Shown here in pieces: positions 42,298-57,100 of a DNA stretch of 64,000 nt. The DNA is from an uncultured Prevotellaceae bacterium (GTDB lineage Bacteria > Bacteroidota > Bacteroidia > Bacteroidales > Bacteroidaceae): the NCBI GenBank assembly GCA_902776545.1, contig CACYQO010000007.1, positions 24,683-88,682 of the forward strand. The letters are read 5' to 3'. Below the pieces are notes generated by a model. It did not search any database and was not told the DNA's origin. It was given only the letters and a program-made list of their open reading frames with translations. Position 1 is the stretch's first letter; each line of letters opens with the position of its first letter. The translations under genes and the position numbers were made by a program.

Positions 42298-42318
42298 GAA
42301 TAAACCGCGAAACAAAAA

Positions 42319-43443: not shown

Positions 43444-43474
43444 CAAGGGTATCAATTATTAAACAGCAGACGCG

Positions 43475-44647
43475 ATGCAAGATTATATAAAACAAGCATA
43501 TTTCTCAGCAGGGTTCTTCAAAGACCTTGTTTTCGACAAAAACTTTAAGTTGGTCGAAGATGACAAGGACTGTGATGAGGTTGATTTATACATAATGAAA
43601 CGCTTTGACAACCTGTTTGGGAATATTGATGCACCTTCCATTTTCAGGGTGTATGTCCTTAATCTTTACAGAGCGTATTGTGTAATGTCTAATTGGGGGA
43701 ATGCGGAGGCAAGGCAGGTTCTGTTTGATGAAATCAAAGAAGACCGAATGGTGTTGGAGGATACTGAGGTTCTTCATCGGTTAGATTGTTTTATAAGATA
43801 TGCTTATTATTTTAGATACTCTGTATATAAGAGTCAGTATCGCAGTTGTATAGAATTGCGTAATCAATGCAAAGATACCCCTGCTGACATTAAAGATGCT
43901 TTCGACAATCCACACGATTATTGGTATTATGCAGGGAAAATGTTACTTAACTACTCAAAGTTACTTGAAGAGAAACTATGTCAGATTGAAAAAGAGAAGG
44001 GGAAGGAGCGGTGTTATCAATACTGCAAGGATATAATAGAAGACTATCAAGATTTGTATCGCATCGCACCAACTTGGCAGGAAGAAAAAGAGTATGATAT
44101 CATTTTTGAAGACACTTCCTATCTTACAAGTGATGACAAAGAAGAACTTGATATTATTGTCTCAATAATTCAGGGCTATATCTCCAACTATGAAGAAAGC
44201 GAGAGACAGAAAGCGTTGCAACACCTCTCCTTAGAAGCCATCTTGAAAGACTGCCCTAAATTAAACAGAATAAAGAATAGTATTCAAAAAGCAATCGATT
44301 ACGGGTGTATTGCATACCGTAAAGGTGGGTTGTTAGGAGAAGATGGGTTGCTTGTTCCCATTGTAAAACAAGGTGAGAATACATTTCCTTCTGATTCCGC
44401 TTTCGCTTACTTTATTGGTGTGGCACTTGACTTAAACGAGAGGGGAGAGAAGTTTCCCGAACTTGAAGTTAAAAGAGTGTTCAAGGGTGAAACGAAGAAC
44501 GGCAATCAGCCTGATTGGGCTGCATATTGGCGACAGCAAAACAGACCGAGAACAGATGCTACCAAGTTTAAGAGTCGGTCGCAGTCTGCCGTGTATATGG
44601 TTTCCCCCAAGACAGTAGACTTCGTCACCCGTGTACTTGAAGGGTAA
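43475..44647 (+). CDS. Unknown protein downstream of the XseA-like gene
   Basis: The 390-residue soluble protein is helical and acidic (about 1-260). Its C-terminal 130 residues are mixed, with AIDYGCIAYRKGGLLGEDG, DSAFAYFIGVALDLNERGEKFP and RSQSAVYMVS. No family is recognised. It follows the XseA-like gene by 31 bases and is followed by a strong terminator, so the run 40521-44647 may be one transcript. The pairing suggests a functional link with the XseA-like protein. Confidence 0.6.
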   Translation: MQDYIKQAYFSAGFFKDLVFDKNFKLVEDDKDCDEVDLYIMKRFDNLFGNIDAPSIFRVYVLNLYRAYCVMSNWGNAEARQVLFDEIKEDRMVLEDTEVLHRLDCFIRYAYYFRYSVYKSQYRSCIELRNQCKDTPADIKDAFDNPHDYWYYAGKMLLNYSKLLEEKLCQIEKEKGKERCYQYCKDIIEDYQDLYRIAPTWQEEKEYDIIFEDTSYLTSDDKEELDIIVSIIQGYISNYEESERQKALQHLSLEAILKDCPKLNRIKNSIQKAIDYGCIAYRKGGLLGEDGLLVPIVKQGENTFPSDSAFAYFIGVALDLNERGEKFPELEVKRVFKGETKNGNQPDWAAYWRQQNRPRTDATKFKSRSQSAVYMVSPKTVDFVTRVLEG

Positions 44648-44667
44648 TAGATAACGCTTATCTTACA

Positions 44668-44702
44668 AAGCCTGAGTCGTAAATGATTCAGGCTTTTTTT
44701 TA
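44668..44702 (+). terminator. Rho-independent terminator
   Basis: AAGCCTGAGTC / GATTCAGGCTT stem (11 pairs, one wobble) with a 6-base loop and an eight-T tract. Confidence 0.92.
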
Positions 44703-44868
44703 TGCCCATTTGTGACGTAGTTTTGCATTTAATCCATTCATTAACTGCAAGATGCAGTGATTTTCGTGTTTTTTTTGACATTTTGAGAGAAAAATGGTCA
44801 AAATTACGAAAAACAGGTGTGTAATATGACTGATTTTCTGCCATTTCTGCACATATTCTCAAAAAATA

Positions 44869-44998
44869 TTTTATACGCTGCACTTTTCTCCCAAACCCAT
44901 TTTTATACGCTGAGTATTGGGTGATATATGGTCTATTGCACTTCCCGACACCGAGTCTTTACACGCTGATTTTTATACGCAAACTATTTTTTATACGC
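44869..44998 (+). repeat. Iteron-like direct repeats TTTTATACGC(TG)
   Basis: Exact TTTTATACGC copies begin at 44869, 44901, 44971 and 44989, the first two followed by TG. A variant TTTACACGCTG begins at 44958. They lie in a 570-base gene-free stretch (44648-45217) upstream of the replication-type genes. They could be binding sites for a Rep or regulator protein (origin iterons or operators). Confidence 0.75.
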
Positions 44999-45033
44999 CC
45001 GTTTATCGTATTAAATTGATGCTCAATAATTTG

Positions 45034-45041
45034 TATATTTG
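45034..45041 (+). promoter_or_regulatory. -7 box downstream of the iteron-like array
   Basis: TATATTTG, 36 bases after the last repeat. It probably drives the 45218-48514 genes; nearby repeat-binding protein could control it. Confidence 0.55.
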
Positions 45042-45044
45042 CAA

Positions 45045-45131
45045 GTGAAAAGCAAGGGTGAAAAGGCTGATTTGACTATCAAGTCGAGAGGCAAACGAGG
45101 TAAGCGAAGCAGCACCCCTTATATAGAATAG
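45045..45131 (+). CDS. Possible 28-residue basic leader peptide
   Basis: A GTG-started frame of 28 codons begins 4 bases after the -7 box, so it would be leaderless or start at the very 5' end. The product is basic (KSRGKRGKRSS). It could be chance; the transcript leader to 45218 otherwise shows nothing clear. Confidence 0.25.
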   Translation: MKSKGEKADLTIKSRGKRGKRSSTPYIE

Positions 45132-45217
45132 TAATACAATAATAATAAGCAATTAAATATCAAATATTTGCGGAAAAAACAGGCATTTTTTGGTTTCTAA
45201 TATAAAGGAGTTTGGAT

Positions 45218-45526
45218 ATGAAATACATCGACAAGGACATTCAGTTAGACGAACAGAGAGGTGGTGTTAAGGCTGCATCTTGCATCTGTGACAATGGTTT
45301 TGAGTATGCTTATAACACGATGAGTAGGGGTGGCATCCTGACTGTGATAGACAGCAGTCGTGCCGAGACAGACCCTGTGGCGGTCATCTGTAACTATACC
45401 GCCACGACCATTGACGACATCGAGGCAACTGTGAGCAAGGTGATACGACTTTATAAGGCACATCAGGTCATCAGCATTGCTCGTAACATCGAGGAGTTTG
45501 ACGAGACTTTTAGAAAGATTGCATAA
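45218..45526 (+). CDS. Small unknown protein of the element
   Basis: This 102-residue protein (MKYIDKDIQLDEQRGGVKA-type start) has mixed alpha/beta features: FEYAYNTMSRGG, ILTVIDSSRAETDPVAVICNY and a terminal helix. The start is set by a rare strong Shine-Dalgarno for this phylum, AAAGGAG at 45205-45210, 7 bases before ATG 45218; a TTG at 45212 was rejected. Function is unknown. Confidence 0.65.
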   Translation: MKYIDKDIQLDEQRGGVKAASCICDNGFEYAYNTMSRGGILTVIDSSRAETDPVAVICNYTATTIDDIEATVSKVIRLYKAHQVISIARNIEEFDETFRKIA

Positions 45527-45553
45527 ACATTTAATTTATAATAATTTACAACG

Positions 45554-45994
45554 ATGAATCGACATCAAAACAAGTCCAAGCAGGTGAAGGACAGTAGCCT
45601 CGGACGCAGAAACTTTGAAAATGCAGAAGTCGGTAATCTTAAAAAGCGTGTGGCTCTTAGCGAAGAAGAGGCAATCAGGATTATCGAGGAGGAGGTAAAA
45701 GAAGGAGAAGAGGATAAGTGGGGGGTATGTCTCGTAGATATCGATGGTATCAACGACATCTACTATGAACTCTGCTATTCTCGTAAGTTTATTGGAAGTG
45801 CGAATCTCAATACAGCATTGAGAATAGCAAGAAACGAAGCATTGGTTCTGACGGATGGAGATAAGTTTGCTATTGCCTTTGCATTGGTGGTTGGTGTAGA
45901 CCAAGGATTGTTCGCAAGGAACTTTGTTATCGAAGCCATTAAAAGCATTGGTCTCTCTGCGGAGGAAGAGAAAGAAGCACTTTCCAATTTGTAG
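45554..45994 (+). CDS. Small unknown protein of the element
   Basis: This 146-residue soluble protein has a basic, Asn/Lys-rich start (MNRHQNKSKQVKDSS) followed by an acidic helix (SEEEAIRIIEEEVKEGEED) and a mixed alpha/beta body. It follows the previous gene by 27 bases. No family recognised. The basic head and acidic tail resemble DNA-associated accessory proteins, which is only an impression. Confidence 0.6.
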   Translation: MNRHQNKSKQVKDSSLGRRNFENAEVGNLKKRVALSEEEAIRIIEEEVKEGEEDKWGVCLVDIDGINDIYYELCYSRKFIGSANLNTALRIARNEALVLTDGDKFAIAFALVVGVDQGLFARNFVIEAIKSIGLSAEEEKEALSNL

Positions 45995-46040
45995 AACGTT
46001 TTTAATGGTATCAAAAATTGAACAGTATGTATCATAACCT

Positions 46041-46137
46041 GCAAAATGCGGCTTATGCAATCCGCAAAATGCGGATGCTATTAAGAATAATTAGAGTTTT
46101 AGGGGTAGGACGCTTTGAGCGTCCACCCCCCTAAAAC
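46041..46137. repeat. Direct repeats and a large palindrome upstream of the wHTH gene
   Basis: GCAAAATGCGG occurs at 46041-46051 and 46064-46074, the second inside hairpin TCCGCA-AAA-TGCGGA. A 42-base near-perfect palindrome spans 46096-46137 (GTTTTAGGGGTAGGACGCT on the left, complement on the right, 3-base loop). It lacks a T tract, so an origin, operator or single-strand signal is more likely than a terminator. The stretch 45995-46229 has no gene. Confidence 0.7.
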
Positions 46138-46229
46138 AGAGACGGTGGATGATTGTGTGTGATTGTCCTACTGAGTAGAGGGTTAAGTGAGCGTGTCACA
46201 CACCGCGCCTAAACAAAAGGAAATCAAGT

Positions 46230-46700
46230 ATGTCTAACTATTATTTTCGATTATACGAGAACCTCCTGAAGGAGGTAGATAACCTAACGCAAACTGTTGT
46301 CCTGTGCAAGATTCTCAACTATGCCGAATCGACCAAGACCACACGTCCGACATTTCAACAGACGTATCTGTCGAGCATCCTGAACCTCTCAACCGATACC
46401 GTTGGCAAAGCGTTAAAAGGACTGAAAGAGAAAGGCTTTATCGACTTCAAGGCAAAGGGATATGGTGCGGACAGGACAACCACGTACTACATAACCGACA
46501 AGACTTATTCCTTGACCAAAGGGCGCGACACTCACAAACCCGAAGCATCCTTATCCGAAGAACCAAGTGAAGAAGTGTTGAAGTTGATAGCATCGGCAGA
46601 GGATAGGGAATCGGCAAAGAGGATAGCAGATGAGCACGGTGTGAAACTGACACCTCAGATTGTCGAAACAATTAACAAATTAAAAATCAATTATATATAA
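46230..46700 (+). CDS. Winged-helix protein, possible replication initiator or regulator
   Basis: The 156-residue protein has a winged-helix core (about 15-80: TVVLCKILNYAEST, TYLSSILNLSTDTVGKALKGL, KEKGFIDFKAKGYG, then TTTYYITDKTYSL) similar to the helix-turn-helix used by phage- and plasmid-type initiators. The C-terminal 50 residues are helical. It lies 11 bases before the helicase-primase gene and just after a palindrome cluster, so it may recognise those sites. The element-replication role is inference. Confidence 0.65.
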   Translation: MSNYYFRLYENLLKEVDNLTQTVVLCKILNYAESTKTTRPTFQQTYLSSILNLSTDTVGKALKGLKEKGFIDFKAKGYGADRTTTYYITDKTYSLTKGRDTHKPEASLSEEPSEEVLKLIASAEDRESAKRIADEHGVKLTPQIVETINKLKINYI

Positions 46701-46711
46701 AATAATAATTA

Positions 46712-48514
46712 ATGATAGAAAATCCTATATCGTTTATGAACGATTACGAAAAGTGGCGAGTTACAGACCACAAAGGGGTTTACTCAGGAACCCCGTTAGA
46801 CAACATAGCAAGGGTACAGAAGGGCGACTTTGTAGCGATTGTAGGTGCTGCAAAAGGTGGCAAATCAACCTTCATTCATTGGTACATTGCTCAAATGACA
46901 ATGGTAGCCGATTGGCATATAGCGTTGGTGGACTTTGAAAGTGAGTCGGGTGAGGTGTTTGACCAAATATCTGCCCTCACCAATCCACACCACACTGCCA
47001 CACACATACACCCCATCACCAATGTTGCTTCGGTCGAAGAGGTCATTTATGACGTTGAGCAGGCTAAGGAACTCTACGACATTGACTGTGTAGTCATCGA
47101 CCCTTATAGTAACCTGATGGGTAGAGAGGTGAACACGTACACCATCAATGCGGATTTGGCATTGCTGCAAGCAATGGCTAAACGCTTGGATGTGGTTGTA
47201 ATCCTGATGTGCCATCCTACAAAGAGTACAGGCAAGGGCGAGGATAAGTTAAGCCTGTATAGTGTTACGGGTAGTGCAGCCTTTGCACAGCGAGTAGACC
47301 TTGGATTGACCATCAAGTCGGACTATGACAACTACACAACCACCATAACAGCCGAAATGGTGAGGCATAGCCAACGCGGTAAGATGGGTGGAGTGATAGA
47401 ACTGTCATACAATCCCAAGGCACACAACTTCACCCTGTCCGATACTGACAATGCGTTGGATATGATGTTTCCTACTGAGCAGACTGTCAAGCCTCAGCCA
47501 AAGGTGGATGTGGAGAGGAAGGTAAACTTCACCGAACTCCAAGAACTGCAAGTGAACTACTATCCAAAGGCGACTTCTAACGATGGCGGCAACCGTAGGA
47601 CTGTGAGACTTTTGGAGAGTGTAAACACAACAGACCCTGAGATTGTCGAGTTTTGCAAGTATCTCAGGGAACACGTGGGTGAGTTTACCGACAAAGAGAA
47701 GCAGGACTACAAGCGTATTCACTTCCCTGTTGTAACACCATCCGCGATATTCCTTCCTGACGCGGACAATCGCAAAGTGGAGAGTATTCAAAACTTTACC
47801 AATGTTATAGCCATTGATATTGACTTGAAGGACAACAGGGGCAAAAGCCTTGCGGAGTTACGCACGATTACCAACAAGACCCCTTATGTCTTTTACAGCG
47901 CGGTCAGTGTGTCAGGTCAGGGATTGTTTGCCTTGATAAGGTTGGATAGTGTTGATTCTCCTGACACATTCAGGGAATACTTCTCCGCCTTGGAGGAATA
48001 CTTCAAGTGTAGAGGTGTTGTAATAGATGGTGCGTGTAAAGACCCCACACGTCTCAGATACGTCACCAATGACCCCAACCCATACACCAACGAGAACGCC
48101 TTGGTGTGGACTTATAGAACGCCTGTGTACATACCTATGAAGTATGGTAAGAACTTCAACGTGTCCGATGTGCCTAAGAAGCGTTTTGTGACCACAAGCA
48201 CCCTGACTGATGCTCAGAAGATGGACTTCATCATATCTGACGTAACCAACAACGGCATCATCATCAATCCAACTCACTCCGATACCTTAACGATGAGTGC
48301 TGCCATTGCTAACACTTTCGGTGCTGATGGGTGGGATTACTTTACAGCCCTCAACACCCCGAAACACGGGTACGATGCAGCGGATGTGAAGTATCAGGAC
48401 ATCTACCAACAGGACGTTTCTTCTCCAAAGAGAGAGGCTGCTTTCGGGAGCATTGTAGACCTCTACAAGAGGGCAAAGAACATTGATACGGTGGATTGGA
48501 CTTCAAAGTCCTAA
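46712..48514 (+). CDS. RepA-type helicase fused to a BT4734-like primase domain
   Basis: The 600-residue protein begins with a RecA-fold ATPase: Walker A VGAAKGGKST (about 44-53), Walker B CVVIDPYSNL (about 129), and MCHPTKSTGKGED with TGSAAFAQRVD, as in RepA/DnaB-like helicases. The second half (about 315-490) matches the BT4734/VirE-N primase-like family: VIAIDIDLKDNRGK, YVFYSAVSVSGQGLFALI and DGACKDPTRLRYVTNDPNPY. In most Bacteroidota elements the primase comes first, so the order here is reversed. It should unwind and prime element DNA. Followed by a strong terminator. Confidence 0.85.
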   Translation: MIENPISFMNDYEKWRVTDHKGVYSGTPLDNIARVQKGDFVAIVGAAKGGKSTFIHWYIAQMTMVADWHIALVDFESESGEVFDQISALTNPHHTATHIHPITNVASVEEVIYDVEQAKELYDIDCVVIDPYSNLMGREVNTYTINADLALLQAMAKRLDVVVILMCHPTKSTGKGEDKLSLYSVTGSAAFAQRVDLGLTIKSDYDNYTTTITAEMVRHSQRGKMGGVIELSYNPKAHNFTLSDTDNALDMMFPTEQTVKPQPKVDVERKVNFTELQELQVNYYPKATSNDGGNRRTVRLLESVNTTDPEIVEFCKYLREHVGEFTDKEKQDYKRIHFPVVTPSAIFLPDADNRKVESIQNFTNVIAIDIDLKDNRGKSLAELRTITNKTPYVFYSAVSVSGQGLFALIRLDSVDSPDTFREYFSALEEYFKCRGVVIDGACKDPTRLRYVTNDPNPYTNENALVWTYRTPVYIPMKYGKNFNVSDVPKKRFVTTSTLTDAQKMDFIISDVTNNGIIINPTHSDTLTMSAAIANTFGADGWDYFTALNTPKHGYDAADVKYQDIYQQDVSSPKREAAFGSIVDLYKRAKNIDTVDWTSKS

Positions 48515-48539
48515 TCCACCATCAATGGACTCTCTATGA

Positions 48540-48577
48540 AATGAGTGATATTCCAAAGATATCACTCATTTTTTTTA
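48540..48577. terminator. Bidirectional terminator
   Basis: A 12-bp perfect stem (AATGAGTGATAT / ATATCACTCATT) with a 7-base loop and a nine-base T run. It lies between the helicase gene and the convergent NADAR gene. A second hairpin (GGTGGATT / AATCCACC, 48490-48520) covers the helicase stop codon. Confidence 0.92.
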
Positions 48578-51082
48578 TTAAGAAAATGTATAGTGTCGGG
48601 GGGTAGCCTCATCCACTCTCTTTACTATCTCATTGAAAGCCTTGTATGTTTTAGACAACTTATTGTTTGCTATCTTTATCATCCAACTTGGAATGTCTTT
48701 ATAATACGCTACTGCGATTGCACCACACATACAGGCGATGGTATCGGAATCACCACCCATTGAAATAGCAAGCCTAATGGCATCCTCATAATCTTTGCTT
48801 TCGAGAAATGCTTGAATGGCGTTGGGTACTGAATCGATACATTTTACAGGAATATGTTTATGTTTCTCGACATACTCCTTTGTTTCTTCCCTAAGTGTAT
48901 CACAGTCTTTTTCCAATTTATATGGTATCAATTTCTGAACGGCTTTTTTGATTTCCTGTTTTGACTTCCCTGTTCTCGCCAAATAAACGCATAGTGCTAT
49001 TGCCTGTGCGCCCTTTTCCCCTTCCGTAGAGTTGTGGCTTATGTCGGCAGTAAACTTTGCGACTTCCATAACTTGTTCAATGGAATCACACAGCCATCCG
49101 ACAGCAGATACACGCATAGCACAACCATTAGTATCACCCTTGTATGGCTTGGGTGTTTCAATCCATTTCTGAAAACTCTTACCATACATTGATGTTTCCC
49201 CACCATTCCAATTAAGTTTCACCTTTAATGGATAGTCTTTTGTATATTGATGCACTAACTTGGTTAGACCTTCCAAAGTCAATTTGTCGTTGTCTAACAA
49301 ATAATGCGCCACAGCAATAGTCAATACGCTATCATCCGTCAGTTTGTTGTTCTTCCCATTTTCGGGAAACAATTTTATATTGTCATAGACATACACGTTC
49401 TTCCCTGCTTGTTCGTATATGGAACCTGCTATATCACCAATTATAGCCCCCAATAGTTTGTTCTTTGTATTGGATGACTTCACCACATTCTGATTACTTA
49501 TCTCGGAACGCAGTTCCATCAATAGTTTTCCCAAGATGTTTGCCCCTGAGCATTTATGCACAGCCCATATATCTTTCTTGCTATAAGTTTGGTCTTTCTC
49601 TGCAATGATTTTTTCGCCTGTATTAAGTAGTGCTTCCTTGAAACCTTTGCAGTATCTTACCTTGTATCGCAATGCCTCTCGCATATACCCAAAGCGTATC
49701 TCATAATCTTTTTCAATGGCATCCTTTACGGACTTTTCTAATCGTATTCTTGGCTTCTTTTTTCCTCGGATATAGTAGTAACTATCCCAAGCATTTCTTT
49801 CGCCTGTAAATGACAGCAATTCTTCTTGGTATTCATCATAACCTTGTAGTCTTCGCCAATGGTAGTATTGTTCTGCGCTATGGAATGTCTTTCCATTGAC
49901 AGTAAAGTCGAATGGATAGAAGTTGCTCAGGATTGATTTGTTGTCAAAAGGTCTCTCCATATCCTCTTTATGGTATGAGCAGACTTCAAACAACTCATCC
50001 TTTGTCAGGTTTCTAAATGATTGATTATTAGAAAGTACCGCAGCGCTGCGGTGGATGTTGAAAGTCAACAACTTACCAAATAAGTAAATCTTGGCATCGT
50101 TCAAAACGTCATAATCAATGTATGGCTCAGCCCCATCTCTTAAAGCCTTTCTACACGCCATTAGGATTTTGCCTTGATGGTTCATTCCTTCCCATACCCC
50201 TGTGTTCATCGAGAGGATAGTGGCTTTCTCCTCACGTCTCTTTACTTTCTTTCGCTCTAACTCATCCAACTTCTTATAGTAGGCTTTTCTCGCTGCATTG
50301 TTCTTGCACCCCCAATCACCTACCAACACTTTGTTCATACGGCTTTGATTCTCTATGATGGCTACGTTATCAGGGATTGCCAACAGCATTTCGCAGAACT
50401 CAGGGTGTTGTTTGCACTTCTCCCATACGAGATATAACATCAGATGGAAATGCCACATACTTTGATGAAAGTCCTTTCTGCCGTGTTGTTCGTCTATTTC
50501 GTTATTCCTATACAGTTTCTTGCAATCCCAACCGTTATCTAATGCTTGGATTTCCTTTTGTATTTGGATGCAGTCTTTGTTATTCTTACCGTAGTTGCAC
50601 GCCACGTAAGCAGCCTCAACAGATTGGAACCTATGACCCATAAAGTCGAAAGGGTATTTTAGCATATTACTGAATCCAATACTATACCCGTTATGGCAGA
50701 ATGTACCTTTGGAGAACGCCACAACCTTAATCAAGGAGCAGTCATATCGTTCCATCCGTAGGAAGTCAATCGGTTTGTCGGTATCAAATATTAAACATTC
50801 GTTTGCCTGACGTGCCGACTTCTTTTCGGGTAGGGTATCTGTATTCGTTCCATTGATATACGAACAAACTGTGGCAGGTGCTATTTTAAGTTCCTTTGCA
50901 ATGGCTCTCGCTGACCATTCGGGATGCTCCTCGCGTAGTTTCTGAATCAAGGCATATTTTTTCGCTTTTTCATCGTGTCTACGGTCTATCTTATGGACTT
51001 TGATATATTTTCTTACAGCAGCCTCGGAAACATTGTTATTACGGGCGTTTTCGCTGACAGATATGTCGGGATTGTACTGCAT
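48578..51082 (-). CDS. HTH-NADAR-NADAR-ADP-ribosylglycohydrolase fusion
   Basis: The 834-residue protein has four parts. Residues 1-80 hold one or two helix-turn-helix units (SVSENARNNNVSEAAVRKYIK; ARAIAKELKIAPATVCSYI). NADAR/YbiA domain 1 (about 125-315) is divergent (FMGHRFQSVEAAY, E156). NADAR domain 2 (about 383-525) is canonical: LSNFYPFDFTVNGKTFHSAE (E403) and HKCSGANILGKLLMELR. A DraG-type ADP-ribosylglycohydrolase occupies 541-825, with GAIIGDIAGSIYE, LTDDSVLTIAVA and the metal site GGDSDTIACM. NADAR enzymes act on N-linked ADP-ribose, including ADP-ribosyl-guanine in DNA; DraG enzymes remove ADP-ribose from proteins. A protective role against ADP-ribosylating toxins or defences is likely but unproven. 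Confidence 0.85.
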   Translation of the reverse strand: MQYNPDISVSENARNNNVSEAAVRKYIKVHKIDRRHDEKAKKYALIQKLREEHPEWSARAIAKELKIAPATVCSYINGTNTDTLPEKKSARQANECLIFDTDKPIDFLRMERYDCSLIKVVAFSKGTFCHNGYSIGFSNMLKYPFDFMGHRFQSVEAAYVACNYGKNNKDCIQIQKEIQALDNGWDCKKLYRNNEIDEQHGRKDFHQSMWHFHLMLYLVWEKCKQHPEFCEMLLAIPDNVAIIENQSRMNKVLVGDWGCKNNAARKAYYKKLDELERKKVKRREEKATILSMNTGVWEGMNHQGKILMACRKALRDGAEPYIDYDVLNDAKIYLFGKLLTFNIHRSAAVLSNNQSFRNLTKDELFEVCSYHKEDMERPFDNKSILSNFYPFDFTVNGKTFHSAEQYYHWRRLQGYDEYQEELLSFTGERNAWDSYYYIRGKKKPRIRLEKSVKDAIEKDYEIRFGYMREALRYKVRYCKGFKEALLNTGEKIIAEKDQTYSKKDIWAVHKCSGANILGKLLMELRSEISNQNVVKSSNTKNKLLGAIIGDIAGSIYEQAGKNVYVYDNIKLFPENGKNNKLTDDSVLTIAVAHYLLDNDKLTLEGLTKLVHQYTKDYPLKVKLNWNGGETSMYGKSFQKWIETPKPYKGDTNGCAMRVSAVGWLCDSIEQVMEVAKFTADISHNSTEGEKGAQAIALCVYLARTGKSKQEIKKAVQKLIPYKLEKDCDTLREETKEYVEKHKHIPVKCIDSVPNAIQAFLESKDYEDAIRLAISMGGDSDTIACMCGAIAVAYYKDIPSWMIKIANNKLSKTYKAFNEIVKRVDEATPRHYTFS

Positions 51083-51104
51083 TTTGATTGACTATTTCAA
51101 AGTG

Positions 51105-51112
51105 CAAATATA
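51105..51112 (-). promoter_or_regulatory. -7 box of the NADAR fusion gene
   Basis: The minus strand reads TATATTTG, 22 bases before the ATG at 51082. A TTTG occurs 16 bases further upstream, shorter than the usual spacing. Confidence 0.55.
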
Positions 51113-51145
51113 CAAAATAATTTGGTATCAAAAAGTAAACAGACA

Positions 51146-51180
51146 CCCCTACCACCCCACCCCCTACCTCAGGTATCCCC
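51146..51180 (-). other. Potential G-quadruplex upstream of the NADAR gene
   Basis: On the minus strand four G runs of at least four bases (51177-51180, 51160-51164, 51155-51158, 51146-51149) are separated by loops of 12, 1 and 5 bases. A fifth run (51196-51200) lies nearby. Unusual in this A+T-rich element. Confidence 0.55.
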
Positions 51181-51317
51181 TCTAACAGACCTTGACCCCC
51201 TTTATTGAACTGCTTTGAACTATCCGTGCTGTACCCACCCCCTCTGAAAAAAAAATTATAAAAAATTGGGGCAAAAAAAAGAGGTTCAATATATTTATAA
51301 TTAAACTATAATGAACT

Positions 51318-51509
51318 ATGACAAGAAGATATAGAAGAAAGGCATCGGAAGCCACAAGATTCAAAATGAAAATCGCCCATCAGGGCAGGCGCAACGGAAT
51401 GTTTGGGAAGCATCATACCCAAACTACCAAGGACAAAATCAGTAAGTCAATGCACGACTATTGGAATTGGATTCACACTTATCAGGAAGACGATTACCCA
51501 CTAAAATAG
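51318..51509 (+). CDS. NUMOD3-type DNA-binding microprotein
   Basis: This 63-residue basic protein contains the NUMOD3 motif NGMFGKHHTQTTKDKISKSM (about 27-46), the small DNA-binding unit normally found next to GIY-YIG or HNH nuclease domains in homing endonucleases. Here it stands alone. It may be a remnant of a homing endonuclease or a free DNA-binding regulator. The promoter is unclear; ATTGAAC-type repeats lie on both sides. Confidence 0.65.
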   Translation: MTRRYRRKASEATRFKMKIAHQGRRNGMFGKHHTQTTKDKISKSMHDYWNWIHTYQEDDYPLK

Positions 51510-51563
51510 CCATTCTGACGTTAAGACCGTTTTTTGCGCTTAAATTGAACCATTTAAGTAGGG

Positions 51564-51571
51564 TATCTTTG
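51564..51571 (+). promoter_or_regulatory. Orphan -7 box before a small hairpin
   Basis: TATCTTTG on the plus strand is followed by a palindrome TATTGAAC-TTAT-GGTTCAATA (51599-51619) and no plus-strand gene. It could produce a small RNA running into the convergent gene at 51702-51944. Confidence 0.35.
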
Positions 51572-51701
51572 TATAAATCAGTTTTATACAGGATTCCTAT
51601 ATTGAACTTATGGTTCAATAGGTAGTTCGATATAAAGCCCTAAAATACCGTGTCGCGTGTCGGATGGCTTTCGATTTTTATTTTTCCAAACTTATATTGA
51701 A

Positions 51702-51944
51702 CTACTTTTCCTTGACAGTATCATCCGACTTCTTAGGTGCTGTGATAAGTATGCCTTGACGAATCACGCACTTGGGGTTCCTGTATTCCTTGGTTTCTGA
51801 AAGATTTACAGCACGTAATGAGGAATATACGATGCCTATATCATCTTTCTTGTAGGTATCGCAGAGTGCCTTCAATGACCCAAAATAATGATGGGAATTA
51901 TCCTTGAATAACTCTAAGTGTATGACTTTTAGTTCTTTATTCAT
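51702..51944 (-). CDS. Small unknown protein of the element
   Basis: This 80-residue protein (MNKELKVIHLELFKDNSHHY, YKKDDIGIVYSSLRAVNLSE, CVIRQGILITAPKK) looks like a type common in Bacteroidota mobile DNA, with a conserved GSLKALCDTYKKDDIG segment. Mixed alpha/beta, soluble, no known function. A TACCTTTG box lies just upstream on the same strand. Confidence 0.7.
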   Translation of the reverse strand: MNKELKVIHLELFKDNSHHYFGSLKALCDTYKKDDIGIVYSSLRAVNLSETKEYRNPKCVIRQGILITAPKKSDDTVKEK

Positions 51945-51967
51945 AAAGTAACATTTTTTACCATCTG

Positions 51968-51975
51968 CAAAGGTA
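51968..51975 (-). promoter_or_regulatory. -7 box of the 80-residue protein gene
   Basis: The minus strand reads TACCTTTG, 24 bases before the start codon. No clear -33 box. Confidence 0.6.
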
Positions 51976-52167
51976 CAAAATTATCTTAATATTGTCATAC
52001 AATGTTGTAAAAAACATACATTTTATGTCAAGTTTTTCTGTTTGTAAGAAATTGATTTTATCTGAATTAAGTATATAACTGATTGGTATGGTGAGTGTTG
52101 TATATTCACAACATTTTATTTAAGATTATTTAACAAATTAAATGCAACATATATCGGATATTTGTCG

Positions 52168-52175
52168 TATCTTTG
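52168..52175 (+). promoter_or_regulatory. -7 box of the small-gene cluster
   Basis: TATCTTTG, 50 bases before the DUF2693 gene; it may drive the run of small plus-strand genes up to the methyltransferase. Confidence 0.6.
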
Positions 52176-52225
52176 CAACAGAAACAAGGAACAAAGAATA
52201 AGTCAAACAATAAAAAAATACAGTT

Positions 52226-52588
52226 ATGAATACAATGATGACCACCGCTTGCAAAGAACTTAGCCAAATCGCTGTCCTTGATGGTATGACCGCTATCCGC
52301 GCTAATGTAATCGCCAACCGTACCGACAATGCCCTGTGCGGTATTACCAAGGCTATGATGATTCAGGTATTGAAGACCAAACTTAGTGAGGGTGTTGCCT
52401 CCTTCGTATTTGCTAAGAAGGATGGTACTTTGAGACACGCCTACGGCACAACCAAGAAAGAACTCGCCTCTGCACACATAAACGGTCGTGGAGAGAGTAG
52501 AGAAAACTATGCTTGCTGTGCATATTGGGATGTCGAGAAGGGTGCTTGGAGAAGTTTCAGATGGGAAACCTTGGTTCAGGTGCTTTAA
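52226..52588 (+). CDS. DUF2693-like SH3 beta-barrel protein
   Basis: This 120-residue protein fits the Bacteroidota family of SH3-barrel proteins often found in mobile elements: ASFVFAKKDGTLRHAYGTTK, then ACCAYWDVEKGAWRSFRWETL, with the K-x-DG-T-x-R and AWRSFR motifs. The N-terminal 50 residues form a helical extension. Function is unknown; nucleic-acid or protein binding is possible. A hairpin (52576-52599) covers its stop codon. Confidence 0.75.
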   Translation: MNTMMTTACKELSQIAVLDGMTAIRANVIANRTDNALCGITKAMMIQVLKTKLSEGVASFVFAKKDGTLRHAYGTTKKELASAHINGRGESRENYACCAYWDVEKGAWRSFRWETLVQVL

Positions 52589-52599
52589 GTAGCACCTGA
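52576..52599 (+). terminator. Hairpin over the stop of the DUF2693-like gene
   Basis: TCAGGTGCT / AGCACCTGA stem with a 6-base loop (TTAAGT) and no T run. It is more likely an attenuator or mRNA-end stabiliser than a strong terminator. Confidence 0.5.
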
Positions 52600-52650
52600 C
52601 CATCGGGGTAAGTAAAGATGTAATTAACTTAAACAATAGGAGATATAGCA

Positions 52651-52854
52651 ATGAGAACTCGCAAACTTGGTGAATATTTTTTCGGTCGGCATTACTTTCA
52701 ATGGGGTATATGGCAAGTTGATTATGTCGGTGAGAATGGCGCAACAAGTGGTCGTCATATTATGGACGTTCCCTCATACCCCGAAGCCCTTAAAACCACT
52801 TGGAAACTCAATGGTTGGGGTGAACCCAAATATATCAATCCAAACATCTATTAA
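52651..52854 (+). CDS. Small unknown protein of the element
   Basis: This 67-residue protein is rich in aromatic residues (EYFFGRHYFQWGIWQVDYVG) and ends KLNGWGEPKYINPNIY. It looks like a small beta-rich fold. The translation start region AATAGGAGATATAGCAATGA is nearly identical to that of the next gene, suggesting shared translational control or duplication. No family recognised. Confidence 0.6.
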   Translation: MRTRKLGEYFFGRHYFQWGIWQVDYVGENGATSGRHIMDVPSYPEALKTTWKLNGWGEPKYINPNIY

Positions 52855-52876
52855 CCCAACATAGGAGATTGTAGCA

Positions 52877-53239
52877 ATGACACAACAGATTGACAACTTT
52901 GATAGGGATATGGCTCGTTATATCTTGAATATCCTGAGAACTCAGCCCAATGTTATGATGAGTTGGGGTTTCCATTCGGCAATGATTATTAAGAACGGTC
53001 TGCGTTTCTTCGTTCACGGTTTCCAACACAAAGGATGGTGTAGCGTTGTGTATGATGAGGGAAAAGACACCTTCACCTTCTGTACCTATGGAATAAGGGG
53101 GAACATTAAGTATCAAGTCGAGGATGTCTATTTTGACAATTTGGTTGAGATTATTGACTCGGCAGTCGAGACAGGAAAGATGAACGATGAACAGTACAAA
53201 CAGAAGGTTTCGGAATGGTTGAAGAAGGGTGTAGCATAG
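52877..53239 (+). CDS. Small unknown protein of the element
   Basis: This 120-residue protein has an N-terminal helix (RDMARYILNILRTQP), beta strands (GLRFFVHGFQHKGWCSVVYD, TFTFCTYGIRG) and a C-terminal helical part (SAVETGKMNDEQYKQKVSEW). No family recognised. It shares its ribosome-binding context (ATAGGAGATTGTAGCAATGA) with the previous gene. Followed by about 110 A+T-rich bases with no visible signal. Confidence 0.6.
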   Translation: MTQQIDNFDRDMARYILNILRTQPNVMMSWGFHSAMIIKNGLRFFVHGFQHKGWCSVVYDEGKDTFTFCTYGIRGNIKYQVEDVYFDNLVEIIDSAVETGKMNDEQYKQKVSEWLKKGVA

Positions 53240-53353
53240 CACCCTTCACTTATCACCAAAGTGAAAACGCAATAAATTAAAAATCAGATAAAATTAAAAA
53301 TCGAGCAAAAAACAGATTCACTTATAGGTCAAACCGCCATAAAACTGAATATT

Positions 53354-53944
53354 ATGAGTACCAAAAACAGCAACACAACATCAGATTACATCCCTTGGGA
53401 TTCTGCAATGAACCTTGTACACCGCCTCTTCAAGGATGGCGAATACCGAATGAGCCTTCTTGTCGGATGTGGTTGTTTTTTCGGTTTACGTATCTCAGAC
53501 CTGTTATCCTTAACGTGGAAGCAGGTTCTAAACGAGGATGGAACCTTTACCCTCAACGAAAAGAAGACAGGTAAGAGGAGAACCATTAAGGTCAATGCCA
53601 ATTTCAAAAAGCACATCGAGGACTGCCATCAGGCACTTGGTATAACAGATGACAATGAGCATTGCTTTTTATCCCGTAAGGGCTGCGTTTACACCACTCA
53701 GCGCATCAATGTTAAGTTGAAGTTTATTAAGGCGCGATACGGGCTAAAAATAGAGCATTTCAGCACACATAGCCTCAGAAAGACTTTCGGGAGAAAGGTG
53801 TTTGAATCCGCAGGGGAACAAGCAGAGGTGGCATTAGTCAGGTTAATGGAACTATTTAATCAATCATCGGTATCAATAACTAAACGCTATCTTGGACTGA
53901 GACAGGAAGAGTTGTTAGGAACCTATGACCTGTTGGAGTTTTAA
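53354..53944 (+). CDS. Minimal tyrosine recombinase
   Basis: The 196-residue protein is essentially the catalytic domain of a phage-type integrase. It has the first Arg in FFGLRISDLLSLTW (about residue 46), the box HSLRKTFG (His and second Arg, about 140) and the nucleophile Tyr in KRYLGL (about 178). The usual N-terminal arm- and core-binding domains are absent. Since the element already has a serine integrase, this enzyme may resolve dimers, invert a segment or help phase variation; I see no clear inverted target nearby. It could also be a remnant of a separate element. Confidence 0.82.
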   Translation: MSTKNSNTTSDYIPWDSAMNLVHRLFKDGEYRMSLLVGCGCFFGLRISDLLSLTWKQVLNEDGTFTLNEKKTGKRRTIKVNANFKKHIEDCHQALGITDDNEHCFLSRKGCVYTTQRINVKLKFIKARYGLKIEHFSTHSLRKTFGRKVFESAGEQAEVALVRLMELFNQSSVSITKRYLGLRQEELLGTYDLLEF

Positions 53945-53955
53945 TGTGAATTGAT

Positions 53956-54309
53956 ATGAATATCTTTGAATTACAGGATATCTTCACCAAGAAAATGTTG
54001 GATGACCATAGAAACGGAATGTTGGTGGATGGAATGTTGGAACCTTATTTCGCTTGGAAATCGGGTTCCAACCCATTACCAACCCTGAATGAGGCTATGG
54101 ATATAGTCAATGTGGCAGTGGGTATGTTGGATGAGTTCTATGACCGCTATCCTAATGCGGTGGGTGAACAGGGGAATAATGAGAATGACCCTTGGAATGA
54201 TTATGTTGGATATGGTAAGGACAAGTACATCGTATCTTACCTTGAAGCCATAGATGGTGAGGTTTCAAATTGGATAATCTCAGGCATACTACGCAATAAA
54301 AGTGAATAA
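53956..54309 (+). CDS. Small unknown protein of the element
   Basis: This 117-residue acidic protein (MNIFELQDIFTKKMLDDHRN, LNEAMDIVNVAVGMLDEFYD) is mostly helical and has no recognised family. It follows the tyrosine recombinase by 11 bases and is probably co-transcribed with it. Its acidic character and position resemble small partner or anti-restriction-type proteins, but no motif supports this. Confidence 0.55.
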   Translation: MNIFELQDIFTKKMLDDHRNGMLVDGMLEPYFAWKSGSNPLPTLNEAMDIVNVAVGMLDEFYDRYPNAVGEQGNNENDPWNDYVGYGKDKYIVSYLEAIDGEVSNWIISGILRNKSE

Positions 54310-54338
54310 TATACGTTATTGTAAAAAATAGAAAAAAA

Positions 54339-54638
54339 ATGAGCAGTCTATTCCCTGATGATGGATGCGTAGACATCCAAGACCTATATAAGTGGCAGCA
54401 GGAGATTATGGATGTACTCCAAGAGTACGCAGATAACCCCTCTGACTTTGACGGGTATGTCTTTGCCATTTACCCATCTTTGAAAGTGGCAATAGAACGT
54501 GCAGAGGATGTTACAGATGCAGAGATTGAGACCTTCAATCTCGCTGACTTTGTTTGCAAGAATGAGAAAGGAGAGATAGAGGTAGACTTCGACAAGGTGG
54601 ATGAAATATCCAATCAATTTATGTTTGTAGCAAGATAG
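54339..54638 (+). CDS. Small unknown protein of the element
   Basis: This 99-residue, strongly acidic protein (MSSLFPDDGCVDIQDLYKWQ, AIERAEDVTDAEIETFNLAD) is helical and soluble. It lies 29 bases after the previous gene and 4 bases before the next. The charge pattern recalls DNA-mimic anti-restriction proteins; there is no sequence motif to confirm that. Confidence 0.55.
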   Translation: MSSLFPDDGCVDIQDLYKWQQEIMDVLQEYADNPSDFDGYVFAIYPSLKVAIERAEDVTDAEIETFNLADFVCKNEKGEIEVDFDKVDEISNQFMFVAR

Positions 54639-54642
54639 AGCA

Positions 54643-54918
54643 ATGGAACAGAAAGAATACTTTGAGTGTTGGGTGGCATACCGTAACAATACAGATGCTA
54701 AGGAGAATTGGGTGGAACAGTTCAACACCCGTAAACAGGCGACATCGTACATCAACGAACACTTTTCCAATGGAAAGGTGATGTGCTGTCTGTCTGTTGA
54801 TGCCAACCTTTCAGGCAATGAATATGGGTATGGTGAGAACAAATCCGAGGCATTAAAGAACTTGAAAGAACAACTAAAAAACTATGGTTATACACCGTAT
54901 AACCCATATACTGATTAA
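54643..54918 (+). CDS. Small unknown protein of the element
   Basis: This 91-residue protein (FECWVAYRNNTDAKENWVEQ, RKQATSYINEHFSNGKVMCC, LKNLKEQLKNYGYTPYNPYT) has alternating strands and helices. It lies 26 bases before the cytosine methyltransferase gene on the same strand and is probably in the same transcript. Could be a controller or accessory protein; no helix-turn-helix motif is obvious. Confidence 0.55.
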   Translation: MEQKEYFECWVAYRNNTDAKENWVEQFNTRKQATSYINEHFSNGKVMCCLSVDANLSGNEYGYGENKSEALKNLKEQLKNYGYTPYNPYTD

Positions 54919-54944
54919 ACTACAAGAAAAGACAGCACAAATAG

Positions 54945-56213
54945 ATGAAAGACCTTAAAGTCATAGAATTATTTGCAGGTGTGGGCGGTTTTAGAATTGG
55001 CTTGGATAGAGTTAATGATGAAATCGGAAAAGAGTTCTTTAAAACTATATGGAGCAATCAGTTTGAACCTGCAACGAAGATACAACACGCATCAAGAACA
55101 TACGTTGCCCGATTTGGTGCAGAAGGACACGTAAATAAAGATATCGCCTTGGTTCCTGCCTCAGAAATCCCCGAACACGATATGTTGGTAGGTGGTTTCC
55201 CCTGTCAGGATTATAGCGTTGCAAGGACTCTTAGTCAAGCAGCAGGTATAGAAGGTAAGAAAGGTGTGTTATGGTGGGAGATATACCGCATCTTGCACGA
55301 TAAAGAAAAGAAAAGTGCAAAGTATCTTTTCCTTGAAAATGTAGATAGATTAGTCCAATCTCCTGCAAAGCAAAGAGGGCGTGATTTTGCCCTAATGCTT
55401 CAATCCCTTTCTGATTTGGGCTATTATGTGGAATGGAGAATTGTAAATGCAGCCGAATACGGTATGCCTCAGAGGAGAAGACGTACATACATTTTGGCTT
55501 ATAGAAAGGACACTAAGATTGCTAAAAGCATTAAAGACCCAACAGAATGGCTGTTTACGCAGGGTGTGTTTGCTAACGCTTTTCCCATTAAGGACTATAC
55601 TCTTGAATACCCCCTTCACCCCAATTCATTAAAATCATCCCCTGAGAGTGATTTAGCAGACCTCAGCAATGAGTTTAACAAATCCAACAAGATAAAACCA
55701 TTTGAGAACGCAGGTGTAATGATTGATGGTGAGTATTGGACTTTCAAGACAGAGCCAAACTATCACGGTGATTACACTACGCTTGGTGATATTATTGTCA
55801 AGGGTAATGATAGAAAATACATTACCGAAGACTTCTACGTGTCAGACAAAGACCTTCCTCAATGGCAGTATCTCAAAGGTGCAAAACACGAAGAGAGAAA
55901 GGGAAAAGATGGGTTTACATTCTTCTACAATGAAGGTGGAATGGCTTTTCCTGACAGTTTAGATAAACCATCAAGAACTATTATCACGTCAGAGGGAGGT
56001 AAGACCCCATCAAGATTCAAACACGTTATCTTAGACCCCGTAACAAAAAGGTATCGTAGATTAGTTCCTATCGAATTGGAACGACTTGATATGTTCCCCG
56101 ACAATCACACAATAGGTGAGAATGACACAAAACGAGCCTTTTTTATGGGTAATGCCCTTGTATGTGGCATTATCACCAAGGTTGGAGAAGAGTTGTACAA
56201 CAGGATAAAATAA
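54945..56213 (+). CDS. DNA (cytosine-5) methyltransferase
   Basis: The 422-residue enzyme has the ordered C5-methylase motifs: I (VIELFAGVGGFRIGL, about 6-20), IV (VGGFPCQDYSVA, catalytic Cys about 88), VI (FLENVDRL), VIII (GMPQRRRRTYILA) and the final IX-X region (SRTIITSEGG, IELERLDMFPDNHT, FFMGNALVCGII). The target-recognition region (about 195-330) is of medium length. The recognition sequence cannot be read from the protein. It may protect the element or be half of a type II restriction system with the next gene, 8 bases downstream. Confidence 0.93.
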   Translation: MKDLKVIELFAGVGGFRIGLDRVNDEIGKEFFKTIWSNQFEPATKIQHASRTYVARFGAEGHVNKDIALVPASEIPEHDMLVGGFPCQDYSVARTLSQAAGIEGKKGVLWWEIYRILHDKEKKSAKYLFLENVDRLVQSPAKQRGRDFALMLQSLSDLGYYVEWRIVNAAEYGMPQRRRRTYILAYRKDTKIAKSIKDPTEWLFTQGVFANAFPIKDYTLEYPLHPNSLKSSPESDLADLSNEFNKSNKIKPFENAGVMIDGEYWTFKTEPNYHGDYTTLGDIIVKGNDRKYITEDFYVSDKDLPQWQYLKGAKHEERKGKDGFTFFYNEGGMAFPDSLDKPSRTIITSEGGKTPSRFKHVILDPVTKRYRRLVPIELERLDMFPDNHTIGENDTKRAFFMGNALVCGIITKVGEELYNRIK

Positions 56214-56221
56214 AAGCATCT

Positions 56222-56989: not shown

Positions 56990-57097
56990 ATGTTATTACT
57001 AATACGAACGATTAAACTATTATATGTCAGGAAGTTGCGGTGAAATGATGAAAAGTATATCAACAAGATATCTGCCCCTCTTTTTCCATCTTTGGAA

Positions 57098-57100
57098 TGA
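57098..57100. other. Right attachment junction of the integrative element
   Basis: Element sequence TTTGGAA meets TGA, then chromosomal CATCCACATCGAGG. The shared TGA matches the left junction at 38020-38022. Confidence 0.8.

What the first reader, a model, noticed from the sequence alone, without database searches (positions are those of the whole stretch)
48578..51082. HTH-NADAR-NADAR-ADP-ribosylglycohydrolase fusion on a mobile element
A single 834-residue protein contains a DNA-binding head, a divergent NADAR domain, a canonical NADAR domain and a metal-dependent ADP-ribosylglycohydrolase. NADAR can remove ADP-ribose from guanine in DNA and DraG-type enzymes remove it from proteins, so this protein could erase both nucleic-acid and protein ADP-ribosylation. 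With an HTH head it may be targeted to DNA or self-regulating. It could be an antitoxin without a toxin, an anti-defence protein against DarT-type enzymes, or a NAD/ADP-ribose scavenging enzyme. I know of no description of this combination.
Basis: partly seen in the sequence, partly recalled or inferred. Interest (0 to 1): 0.87.

Follow-up and report, generated by a model that had tools for sequence, protein, structure and literature searches.

The report
HTH–NADAR–NADAR–ARH fusion on an island
A Bacteroidales-type bacterium carries, on a mobile DNA island, one long protein that joins a DNA-binding head to three parts of the kind that bind or cut off ADP-ribose tags; the parts are known, no second copy of the whole chain turned up, and it may be a one-piece defence against enzymes that tag DNA or proteins.

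Summary
An intact 834-residue ORF lies on the minus strand at 48578-51082: two-HTH head, divergent NADAR, canonical NADAR, ARH/DraG-type ADP-ribosylglycohydrolase (ARG). Models of both NADARs hit only YbiA (2b3w) and NADAR 8bau at E<=0.001. The ARG metal/catalytic positions and both NADAR glutamates are kept. The key NADAR lysine is Arg in the canonical copy; the divergent copy has none, nor do 50 of 50 aligned relatives, so that copy may be a binder/sensor or have other chemistry. The gene sits on a ~19-kb serine-recombinase island that splits comM and carries a type II DNA methyltransferase. No ADP-ribosyltransferase (ART) was found in the window with the profile used. My searches, all sample- or pattern-limited, found no second NADAR+ARG fusion. 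Separate-gene equivalents exist in the family: NADAR/NADAR/ARG, NADAR/NrtR/ARG, Cro-HTH+divergent NADAR, ART-NADAR pairs. The closest described concept is the predicted ART-less 'ARG-centric' host systems against viral ARTs (Iyer 2022). I call it a new variant: a one-gene ADP-ribose eraser with its own DNA-binding sensor. All function is inferred; nothing was assayed.

The parts
48578..51082 (-). 834-aa fusion gene (HTH head + divergent NADAR + NADAR + ARG)
50837..51082 (-). two-HTH DNA-binding head, residues 1-82
   Evidence: Pfam HTH_11 E 1.5e-4 below cut-off; phrog_14131 'DNA binding protein' on 3-82, E 3.2e-7; five helices in the model; similar head on other proteins
50057..50770 (-). divergent NADAR domain, residues 105-342; E156, E244, W257 kept, position of the catalytic Lys (E+7) is N163
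   Evidence: the Lys position is assigned by spacing from E156
49493..49948 (-). canonical NADAR domain, residues 379-530; E404, R411 (Lys position), K474, E495, W506
48614..49465 (-). ADP-ribosylglycohydrolase (ARH/DraG), residues 540-823; E557, T582-D583-D584, H683, D778, D780, T781
   Evidence: no structure model was made of this part
51204..51702 (.). array of six ATTGAAC heptamers (both orientations) upstream of the fusion gene
   Evidence: function (operator or iteron) not tested
38022..57093 (.). ~19-kb island inserted in comM/yifB
   Evidence: comM parts on both sides, approximate breakpoints by comparison with intact homologues; GC 0.402 against 0.473 in window 1-36000
36863..38021 (+). 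left part of comM/yifB, interrupted by the island
   Evidence: Pfam Mg_chelatase E 3.5e-94 in ORF 36863-38050
57094..57485 (+). right part of comM/yifB
   Evidence: Mg_chelatase_C E 1.2e-34 in ORF 57024-57485
38089..40119 (+). large serine recombinase, presumed integrase of the island
   Evidence: Resolvase E 5.4e-17, Recombinase E 1e-9
46712..48514 (+). AAA/primase-like protein of the island
   Evidence: BT4734-like_N E 1.7e-10, AAA_25 E 2.2e-7; PADLOC PrimPol E 2e-12
52226..52588 (+). small WYL_2 protein on the same island
   Evidence: PF10902 E 5.6e-24
53354..53944 (+). short tyrosine recombinase
   Evidence: Phage_integrase E 3.5e-17
54945..56213 (+). type II 5-methylcytosine DNA methyltransferase
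   Evidence: PF00145 E 2.3e-61; PADLOC MTase_II E 3.8e-162
56162..56989 (+). ORF overlapping the methyltransferase; possible cognate nuclease (inference only)
   Evidence: no hit in Pfam or PADLOC

Best explanation
The protein is a one-piece ADP-ribose eraser carried as island cargo. NADAR-C hydrolyses N-glycosidic ADP-ribose on guanine in DNA or RNA. The ARG domain (two metal ions) removes ADP-ribose from proteins or ends. The two-HTH head plus the divergent NADAR form a DNA-bound ADP-ribose reader that controls the gene's own expression or holds the enzyme on DNA. With no ART found beside it, it most likely acts on ADP-ribosylation made by someone else (phage or plasmid ARTs, or a rival's toxin), i.e. 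it is a compact form of the predicted ART-less ARG-centric conflict systems. Shown: domains, folds of both NADARs, residue conservation, island, no ART hit in the window with the profile used. Inferred: every activity, the sensing role, the target and the benefit.
For: Domains and folds. ARG positions E557, T582-D584, H683, D778, D780, T781 invariant in 20 of 20 aligned ARGs, query included. NADAR-C: E404 equivalent in 54 of 54 relatives; Lys-position residue K in 49, R in 4, E in 1 of 54, Arg in the query; E495 equivalent in 48 of 54. Arg there still hydrolyses in vitro in E. coli C7 NADAR. Divergent NADAR: both Glu, R202, D204 and W257 in 50 of 50, Lys in 0 of 50; it occurs behind Cro/CI-type HTH in L041, L044 and viral L102, as a sensor would. 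Separate-gene operons with the same kinds of part: L144 gp30.3-type NADAR / gp30.3-type NADAR+5'-nucleotidase / ARG, same order as in the fusion; L032 nucleotidylyltransferase-NADAR / NADAR / NrtR / ARG-phosphatase-ARG. No ART-profile hit below E 2 in 438 window ORFs and none in G000. Island with a DNA methyltransferase. PADLOC lists the NADAR match as candidate defence family PDC-M42C, E 4.3e-6 (meaning of PDC recalled). Iyer 2022 section 3.8: ART-less ARG systems with HTH sensor regulators and occasional NADAR.
Against: No assay. Only one copy of the architecture is known, so conservation of the whole chain cannot be shown. The ART search used one ART family; other ARTs and sirtuins were not searched in the genome. 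The window contig is probably misbinned (its comM is 59-64% to four comM of that genus, which share 74-78% among themselves), so the host's other genes are unknown. YbiA-type and phage NADARs did not rescue DarT1 toxicity in cells; K95R in E. coli C7 NADAR loses rescue. Neither the phosphatases nor the chaperones of the Iyer systems were hit in the 17 other island ORFs scanned. Iyer 2022 argues that phage NADARs mostly act on small ADP-ribose derivatives rather than macromolecules.
Confidence: 0.45

Rival explanations
1. NAD+/ADP-ribose salvage or damage control: the protein clears toxic ADP-ribose derivatives, and the HTH-NADAR half regulates it in response to ADP-ribose, as NrtR does in NAD operons.
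For: L032 operon: CTP_transf_like-NADAR (NMNAT by eye), NADAR, NrtR and ARG-phosphatase-ARG; GTP cyclohydrolase II-NADAR fusion L179; NADARs proposed to act on riboflavin intermediates; Iyer's view that phage NADARs act on small derivatives.
Against: It sits on a mobile island with a DNA methyltransferase, not in a NAD operon; no NAD-synthesis family among the 17 other island ORFs scanned with Pfam.
Confidence: 0.2
2. Element self-protection (anti-defence): the island erases ADP-ribose put on its DNA or proteins by host ART defences such as DarTG or CmdTAC.
For: Mobile element. [quoted passage not shown] 227 confirmed ARG-encoding stretches in viral contigs. A phage antitoxin mimic against DarTG is in print (PMC11481870, search listing only).
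Against: ARG is rare in phages by Iyer's count (about 5% of jumbo phages). No anti-defence family and no phage structural gene hit in the 17 other island ORFs scanned. Related parts are common in the family's genomes (88 of 201 match, most rows by ARG alone).
Confidence: 0.2
3. Orphan antitoxin: the protein descends from an ART-NADAR toxin-antitoxin pair and neutralises an ART encoded elsewhere.
Against: No ART in the window or G000 with this profile; ARG is not part of those pairs. The ART profile was built from ARTs found beside NADAR or divergent NADAR genes, so the count is ascertained. Two other ART genes have no NADAR within 300 bases: L094 6874-7602 and viral L293.
Confidence: 0.1
4. 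Assembly artefact or decayed gene.
For: Single occurrence; bin of 166 contigs with 7.57% contamination.
Against: One uninterrupted frame of 834 codons; conserved active-site positions.
Confidence: 0.05

Closest known systems
ARG-centric ART-less host systems (Iyer et al. 2022, PMC9503650, section 3.8 read)
   Same: ARG without an ART, DNA-binding sensor proteins, occasional NADAR, variable conflict genes nearby
   Different: There the parts are separate genes or ARG-phosphatase proteins with Nudix or WYL regulators; here HTH, two NADARs and ARG are one chain, no phosphatase or chaperone was hit, and the candidate sensor is a divergent NADAR
PvCTn conjugative transposon of Phocaeicola vulgatus (PMC11005914, passages)
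   Same: A Bacteroidota mobile element with a putative ADP-ribosylglycohydrolase and restriction-modification genes
   Different: About 75 kb with a T4SS; the paper's text has no mention of NADAR; not compared by sequence here
DarT1-NADAR (DarTG1), Schuller et al. 2023, PMC11543638
   Same: NADAR-C has the NADAR fold and the catalytic Glu
   Different: No DarT partner found; Glu in the last strand as in the YbiA family, not Asp; fused to HTH and ARG
YarT-YbiA pair, Cihlova et al. 2024, PMC11125620
   Same: YbiA-type NADAR next to a non-DarT ART, as in the ART-NADAR pairs seen here
   Different: The query has no ART; the ARTs here match ART-PolyVal/DUF3990 below Pfam's cut-off
ARH3 / DraG ADP-ribosylglycohydrolases
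   Same: Sequence match (2qty E 1.8e-13) and metal-site motifs
   Different: C-terminal part of a larger chain
NrtR (Nudix-winged helix regulator of NAD genes)
   Same: Regulator concept: DNA-binding part joined to a domain that binds ADP-ribose
   Different: HTH head and NADAR are other domains than the NrtR winged helix and Nudix

Membership tests
NADAR superfamily (C-terminal copy) | YbiA/NADAR fold | tested here: met
   2b3w E 3.2e-6, 8bau E 1.3e-5, the only PDB hits at E<=0.001; Pfam E 5.7e-19
NADAR superfamily (C-terminal copy) | catalytic Glu, basic residue 7 later, acidic residue in the last strand | tested here: met
   E404, R411, E495; Arg instead of the usual Lys
NADAR superfamily (N-terminal copy) | YbiA/NADAR fold | tested here: met
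   2b3w E 2.8e-4, 8bau E 6.0e-4, the only PDB hits at E<=0.001; profile E 2.2e-15; Pfam E 1.7e-6 but below its cut-off
NADAR superfamily (N-terminal copy) | catalytic Lys (K50 in P. nicotianae, K95 in E. coli C7) | tested here: not met
   N163 in the query; E 38, L 5, A 3, Q 2, I 1, T 1 in 50 relatives; no K or R at E+5 to E+9 in 50 of 50; position assigned by spacing from the Glu
NADAR superfamily (both copies) | hydrolysis of guanine-linked ADP-ribose | not testable with these tools
   needs an enzyme assay
ARH/DraG ADP-ribosylglycohydrolase | domain and dinuclear metal-site residues | tested here: met
   roles of the residues recalled from ARH3, positions from the alignments
DarTG1 toxin-antitoxin | adjacent DarT1 toxin | tested here: not met
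   no DarT or other ART family among the 17 other island ORFs scanned with Pfam; one ART profile on all 438 window ORFs of 40 aa or more
ARG-centric host conflict system (Iyer 2022) | ARG domain with no coupled ART or sirtuin | tested here: met
   island ORF 41971-42297 and ORFs antisense to the genes were not scanned with Pfam
ARG-centric host conflict system (Iyer 2022) | HTH regulator with Nudix or WYL sensor | tested here: inconclusive
   HTH head is on the same chain with a NADAR, not Nudix/WYL; a small WYL_2 protein lies at 52226-52588 without an HTH hit. Iyer report such regulators in just over 42% of systems
ARG-centric host conflict system (Iyer 2022) | phosphatase and peptide-binding chaperone partners | tested here: not met
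   none among the 17 other island ORFs scanned with Pfam; in Iyer's set phosphatases occur in a little over 55%, so not universal

The most novel reading that the evidence does not exclude
The chain is an ADP-ribose-responsive repressor and eraser in one molecule: the two-HTH head binds the ATTGAAC array upstream of its own gene, the lysine-less NADAR reads an ADP-ribose ligand and releases the DNA, and the freed NADAR-C and ARG then clear ADP-ribose from nucleic acid and from protein. That would be a first self-contained sense-and-erase system acting on both classes of substrate.
Probability: 0.15. Interest if true: 0.82.

Novelty: new variant of a known kind. Interest (0 to 1): 0.58.

Why it matters
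If the inference is right, nucleic-acid and protein de-ADP-ribosylation sit on one polypeptide with a DNA-binding reader, so one expression construct could test whether bacteria use dual erasers against ARTs. The search also brought up a lysine-less NADAR family in Bacteroidales, some members of which are joined to HTH regulators (a candidate new ADP-ribose sensor), and recurrent ART-NADAR gene pairs that look like untested toxin-antitoxin or conflict systems.

Tried and rejected
Whole-protein searches found no second copy of the chain: genome contigs 11 pattern stretches, none confirmed; viral contigs 4 stretches, none; 16 of 50,697 phage records match, none over 80% of the query, 15 by the ARG part and 1 (H16) by the NADAR-C part; 20 of 72,556 plasmid records, all by the ARG part; 201 family genomes, only its own. 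These scans are limited by pattern, sample or collection. The island had no megablast match in phages.

Internal duplication of the two NADARs was set aside: against the profile of the divergent family the N copy scores 9.9e-98 and the C copy 0.001.

The ATTGAAC array was not found near the other genes with a similar head (7 genes in 6 loci), so its link to the head rests on position alone.

A joint structure of residues 360-834 was not run because the aligner placed the NADAR rows on the ARG part; the ARG domain therefore has no model here. Rows left out of the 50-relative count: identical sequences, stretches under 190 residues, and L086. M215, L216, W220 and K222 of the divergent family are partly fixed by the search pattern and are not used as evidence. 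In one search the ARG profile did not report the second ARG of the large ARG-phosphatase-ARG proteins that Pfam finds, so that scan can miss diverged domains.

Full report
What is there. The ORF at 48578-51082 is real, 834 codons, on the minus strand. Pfam finds ADP_ribosyl_GH at 543-795 (E 1.3e-36), NADAR at 380-528 (E 5.7e-19, two stretches) and a sub-threshold HTH_11 at 44-76. PHROGs agrees: ADP-ribosylglycohydrolase phrog_6572 E 2.4e-44; the unnamed phrog_1017, which NADARs match, E 5.7e-31 with two stretches; and DNA-binding phrog_14131 on residues 3-82, E 3.2e-7. phmmer against PDB sequences finds ARH3 (2qty E 1.8e-13), DraG entries, and weakly NADAR 8bau (4.6e-4) and YbiA (0.012) on the C copy. 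PADLOC's candidate family PDC-M42C hits 378-528, E 4.3e-6.

The divergent N-terminal NADAR. Pfam NADAR hits residues about 136-315 with E 1.7e-6 but below its cut-off. Of six relatives scanned with Pfam, four hit NADAR at E<1e-4 (one of them, L042, at the cut-off), L058 at 0.011, and L044 not at all; five of five scanned with PHROGs hit phrog_1017. A scan of genome contigs with a seven-member alignment gave 51 loci and viral contigs gave one, L102. Fifty of the 51 record titles name groups of the Bacteroidales (Prevotella, Bacteroides, Phocaeicola, Muribaculaceae and others; order assigned from the names) and one, L058, only the class Bacteroidia. Most encode stand-alone proteins of about 210-270 aa, with overlapping tandem pairs in L052 and L060. 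L086 is a 440-aa canonical-NADAR+divergent-NADAR protein directly after an ART gene. L041 (identical to L061), L044 (identical to L070) and viral L102 carry a Cro/CI HTH in front; L077 is 351 of 410 positions the same as L070 but was not scanned itself. The model of residues 1-348 (mean pLDDT 88.6) hits only 2b3w and 8bau at E<=0.001. In 50 aligned relatives E156, Y159, R202, D204, E244, W257, N301 and G304 are invariant, while the position 7 after the Glu, where characterised NADARs have Lys, is E 38, L 5, A 3, Q 2, I 1, T 1; no gap falls in between, and no K or R lies at E+5 to E+9 in any. In E. coli C7 NADAR that Lys is essential; Arg suffices in vitro but not for rescue in cells; [quoted passage not shown] I infer a ligand-binding pocket with altered or no guanine-ADP-ribose hydrolysis.

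The canonical NADAR. The model of residues 363-536 (pLDDT 84.4) again hits only 2b3w and 8bau at E<=0.001. E404, R411, K474, E495 and W506 line up with the family. The Glu in the last strand places it with the YbiA rather than the DarT1-linked (Asp) or phage (His) type, by the rule quoted in PMC11125620.

The ARG domain. E557, T582, D583, D584, H683, D778, D780 and T781 are invariant over 20 aligned ARGs, query included. Their roles are recalled from ARH3/DraG work. No model was made of this part.

The head. A similar head occurs on about 300-aa proteins with a 'DLPF' motif (methyltransferase-like by eye; Pfam finds no enzyme family in L083) in L046, L053 (two), L056, L081 and L083, and a fragment in L080. 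Five of the 51 divergent-NADAR loci carry such a gene within the fetched flanks, whereas 3 of 201 family genomes have any head match, its own included. These loci are not all independent. Weak matches also lie in two Bacillus phages.

The island. A large serine recombinase (38089-40119) opens a region of about 19 kb that interrupts comM/yifB: the left part ends near 38,021 and the right part resumes near 57,094 (Mg_chelatase_C E 1.2e-34). Of the 19 other relatives searched, 18 have a match, each in a frame of 513-563 aa, and G594 has none. GC is 0.402 on the island and 0.473 in window 1-36000. Pfam was run on 17 other island ORFs: among them an AAA/primase-like protein, a short tyrosine recombinase, a WYL_2 protein and a type II cytosine methyltransferase with an overlapping ORF of no family; ORF 41971-42297 and antisense ORFs were not scanned. 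No ART: the ART profile gives nothing below E 2 in 438 window ORFs, and no match in G000. The contig is probably misbinned: G000 has another comM on C118, 77% identical to a genus member, while the window's is 59% to that copy and 60-64% to three genus members. The host beyond 'order Bacteroidales' is therefore uncertain.

Upstream DNA. Between the fusion gene and the next ORF (51083-51702) ATTGAAC occurs six times and TTGAAC seven; none of 2000 dinucleotide shuffles reaches either, and in none of 500 shuffles does any 6-mer with all four bases occur seven times. Over the whole window ATTGAAC is not enriched (15 against 12.7 expected). The region and motif were chosen after looking. It could be an operator or replication iterons.

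Wider setting. Related parts are widespread: 88 of 201 family genomes match the query, most rows by ARG alone; 22 of 201 family genomes and 34 of 395 class genomes hit Pfam NADAR, its own included in both. Gene clusters: L032 CTP_transf_like-NADAR (NMNAT by eye) / NADAR / NrtR / ARG-phosphatase-ARG; L144 gp30.3-type NADAR / gp30.3-type NADAR+5'-nucleotidase / ARG, the last two overlapping; L145 gp30.3-type NADAR next to an ARG-phosphatase protein, and L036 gp30.3-type+hydrolase next to an 837-aa ARG protein. In the 201 genomes nine near-full-length ART matches (E<1e-60, eight genomes; the one in G066 has a stop inside the matched stretch) each have a canonical NADAR next door (eight) or fused (G190, L135, confirmed by Pfam); the weaker ART hits were fragments, short frames or parts of very large ORFs. 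Seven of the 51 divergent-NADAR loci hold an ART next to a NADAR, two of them (L064, L065) nearly the same sequence; a second ART in L094 and the ART of viral L293 have no NADAR within 300 bases. Viral contig L292 has the pair. The ART profile was built from ARTs near NADAR genes, so these counts are ascertained. Among the 294 loci held, an ORF with both NADAR and ARG profiles occurs only in copies of the query; none of the 80 viral-contig ARG ORFs has it.

Literature. Seen: PMC9503650 (passages, section 3.8), PMC11543638 (passages, section 12), PMC11125620 (outline, sections 3 and 7, section 4 part 1 of 2), PMC11833690 (abstract and outline), PMC11618068, PMC13092281, PMC11888443 and PMC11005914 (passages); PMC11481870 in search listings only. 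Iyer 2022 proposes ART-less ARG systems as host answers to viral ARTs, regulated by HTH sensors and sometimes coupled to NADAR; the same paper finds ARG rare in phages and thinks phage NADARs mostly act on small molecules. PMC11005914 reports an ADP-ribosylglycohydrolase gene with restriction-modification genes on a Bacteroidota conjugative transposon. No paper on an HTH-NADAR-ARG chain appeared in my searches (several listings were capped). De Souza and Aravind 2012, the founding NADAR paper, is known to me from citations and recall only.

Judgement. The chain is best read as a one-gene, mobile version of a known kind of system, with a new element: a lysine-less NADAR in the sensor position next to a DNA-binding head. 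That it erases both nucleic-acid and protein ADP-ribosylation is plausible from the residues but untested.

Noticed in passing
G063:C43, G128:C235, G116:C70, G189:C23, G139:C42, G161:C24 (two), G066:C212, G190:C1; L292 5992-7184: ART-PolyVal-like ADP-ribosyltransferase genes directly followed by, or fused to, a canonical NADAR: 9 of 9 near-full-length ART matches in 201 family genomes (ascertained profile) and one viral contig. Candidate toxin-antitoxin or conflict pair distinct from DarT1-NADAR.
   Followed up: partly
L274 4001-6418 (also L255, L264, L276): 805-aa proteins in viral contigs with ARG fused to HsdM (L274: N6_Mtase E 4.6e-97, HsdM_N E 2.9e-24; the other three by equal length and by eye). 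In L274 a second HsdM-like and an HsdS-like gene follow, by eye.
   Followed up: partly
window 36863-38050 and 57024-57485: comM/yifB split by a serine-recombinase island.
   Followed up: yes
whole window contig (G000:C7): Probably misbinned: its comM is 59-64% to four comM of the bin's genus, which share 74-78%, and the bin holds another comM on C118.
   Followed up: partly
51204-51702: Cluster of six ATTGAAC heptamers upstream of the fusion gene.
   Followed up: partly
L046 7010-7909; L053 73-996 and 10350-11261; L056 13527-14456; L083 1215-2132: A similar two-HTH head on ~300-aa proteins with a methyltransferase-like DLPF motif (by eye); five of 51 divergent-NADAR loci carry one nearby.
   Followed up: partly
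L179 901-2529: GTP cyclohydrolase II-NADAR fusion (542 aa), fits a link of NADAR to riboflavin synthesis.
   Followed up: no
L094 4262-9591; L093 8935-14098; L101 3821-9591: Clusters of ADP-ribose genes: ART, NADAR, microbial PARG and divergent NADAR in each, with a nucleoside deoxyribosyltransferase-like gene in L094 and L101 and an ARG in L093.
   Followed up: partly
L288 3932-5635: ARG fused to DUF6508 in a viral contig.
   Followed up: no
window 57489-61379: 1296-aa secreted-looking protein with a gingipain-like look and a C-terminal sorting-type tail, by eye, not scanned.
   Followed up: no
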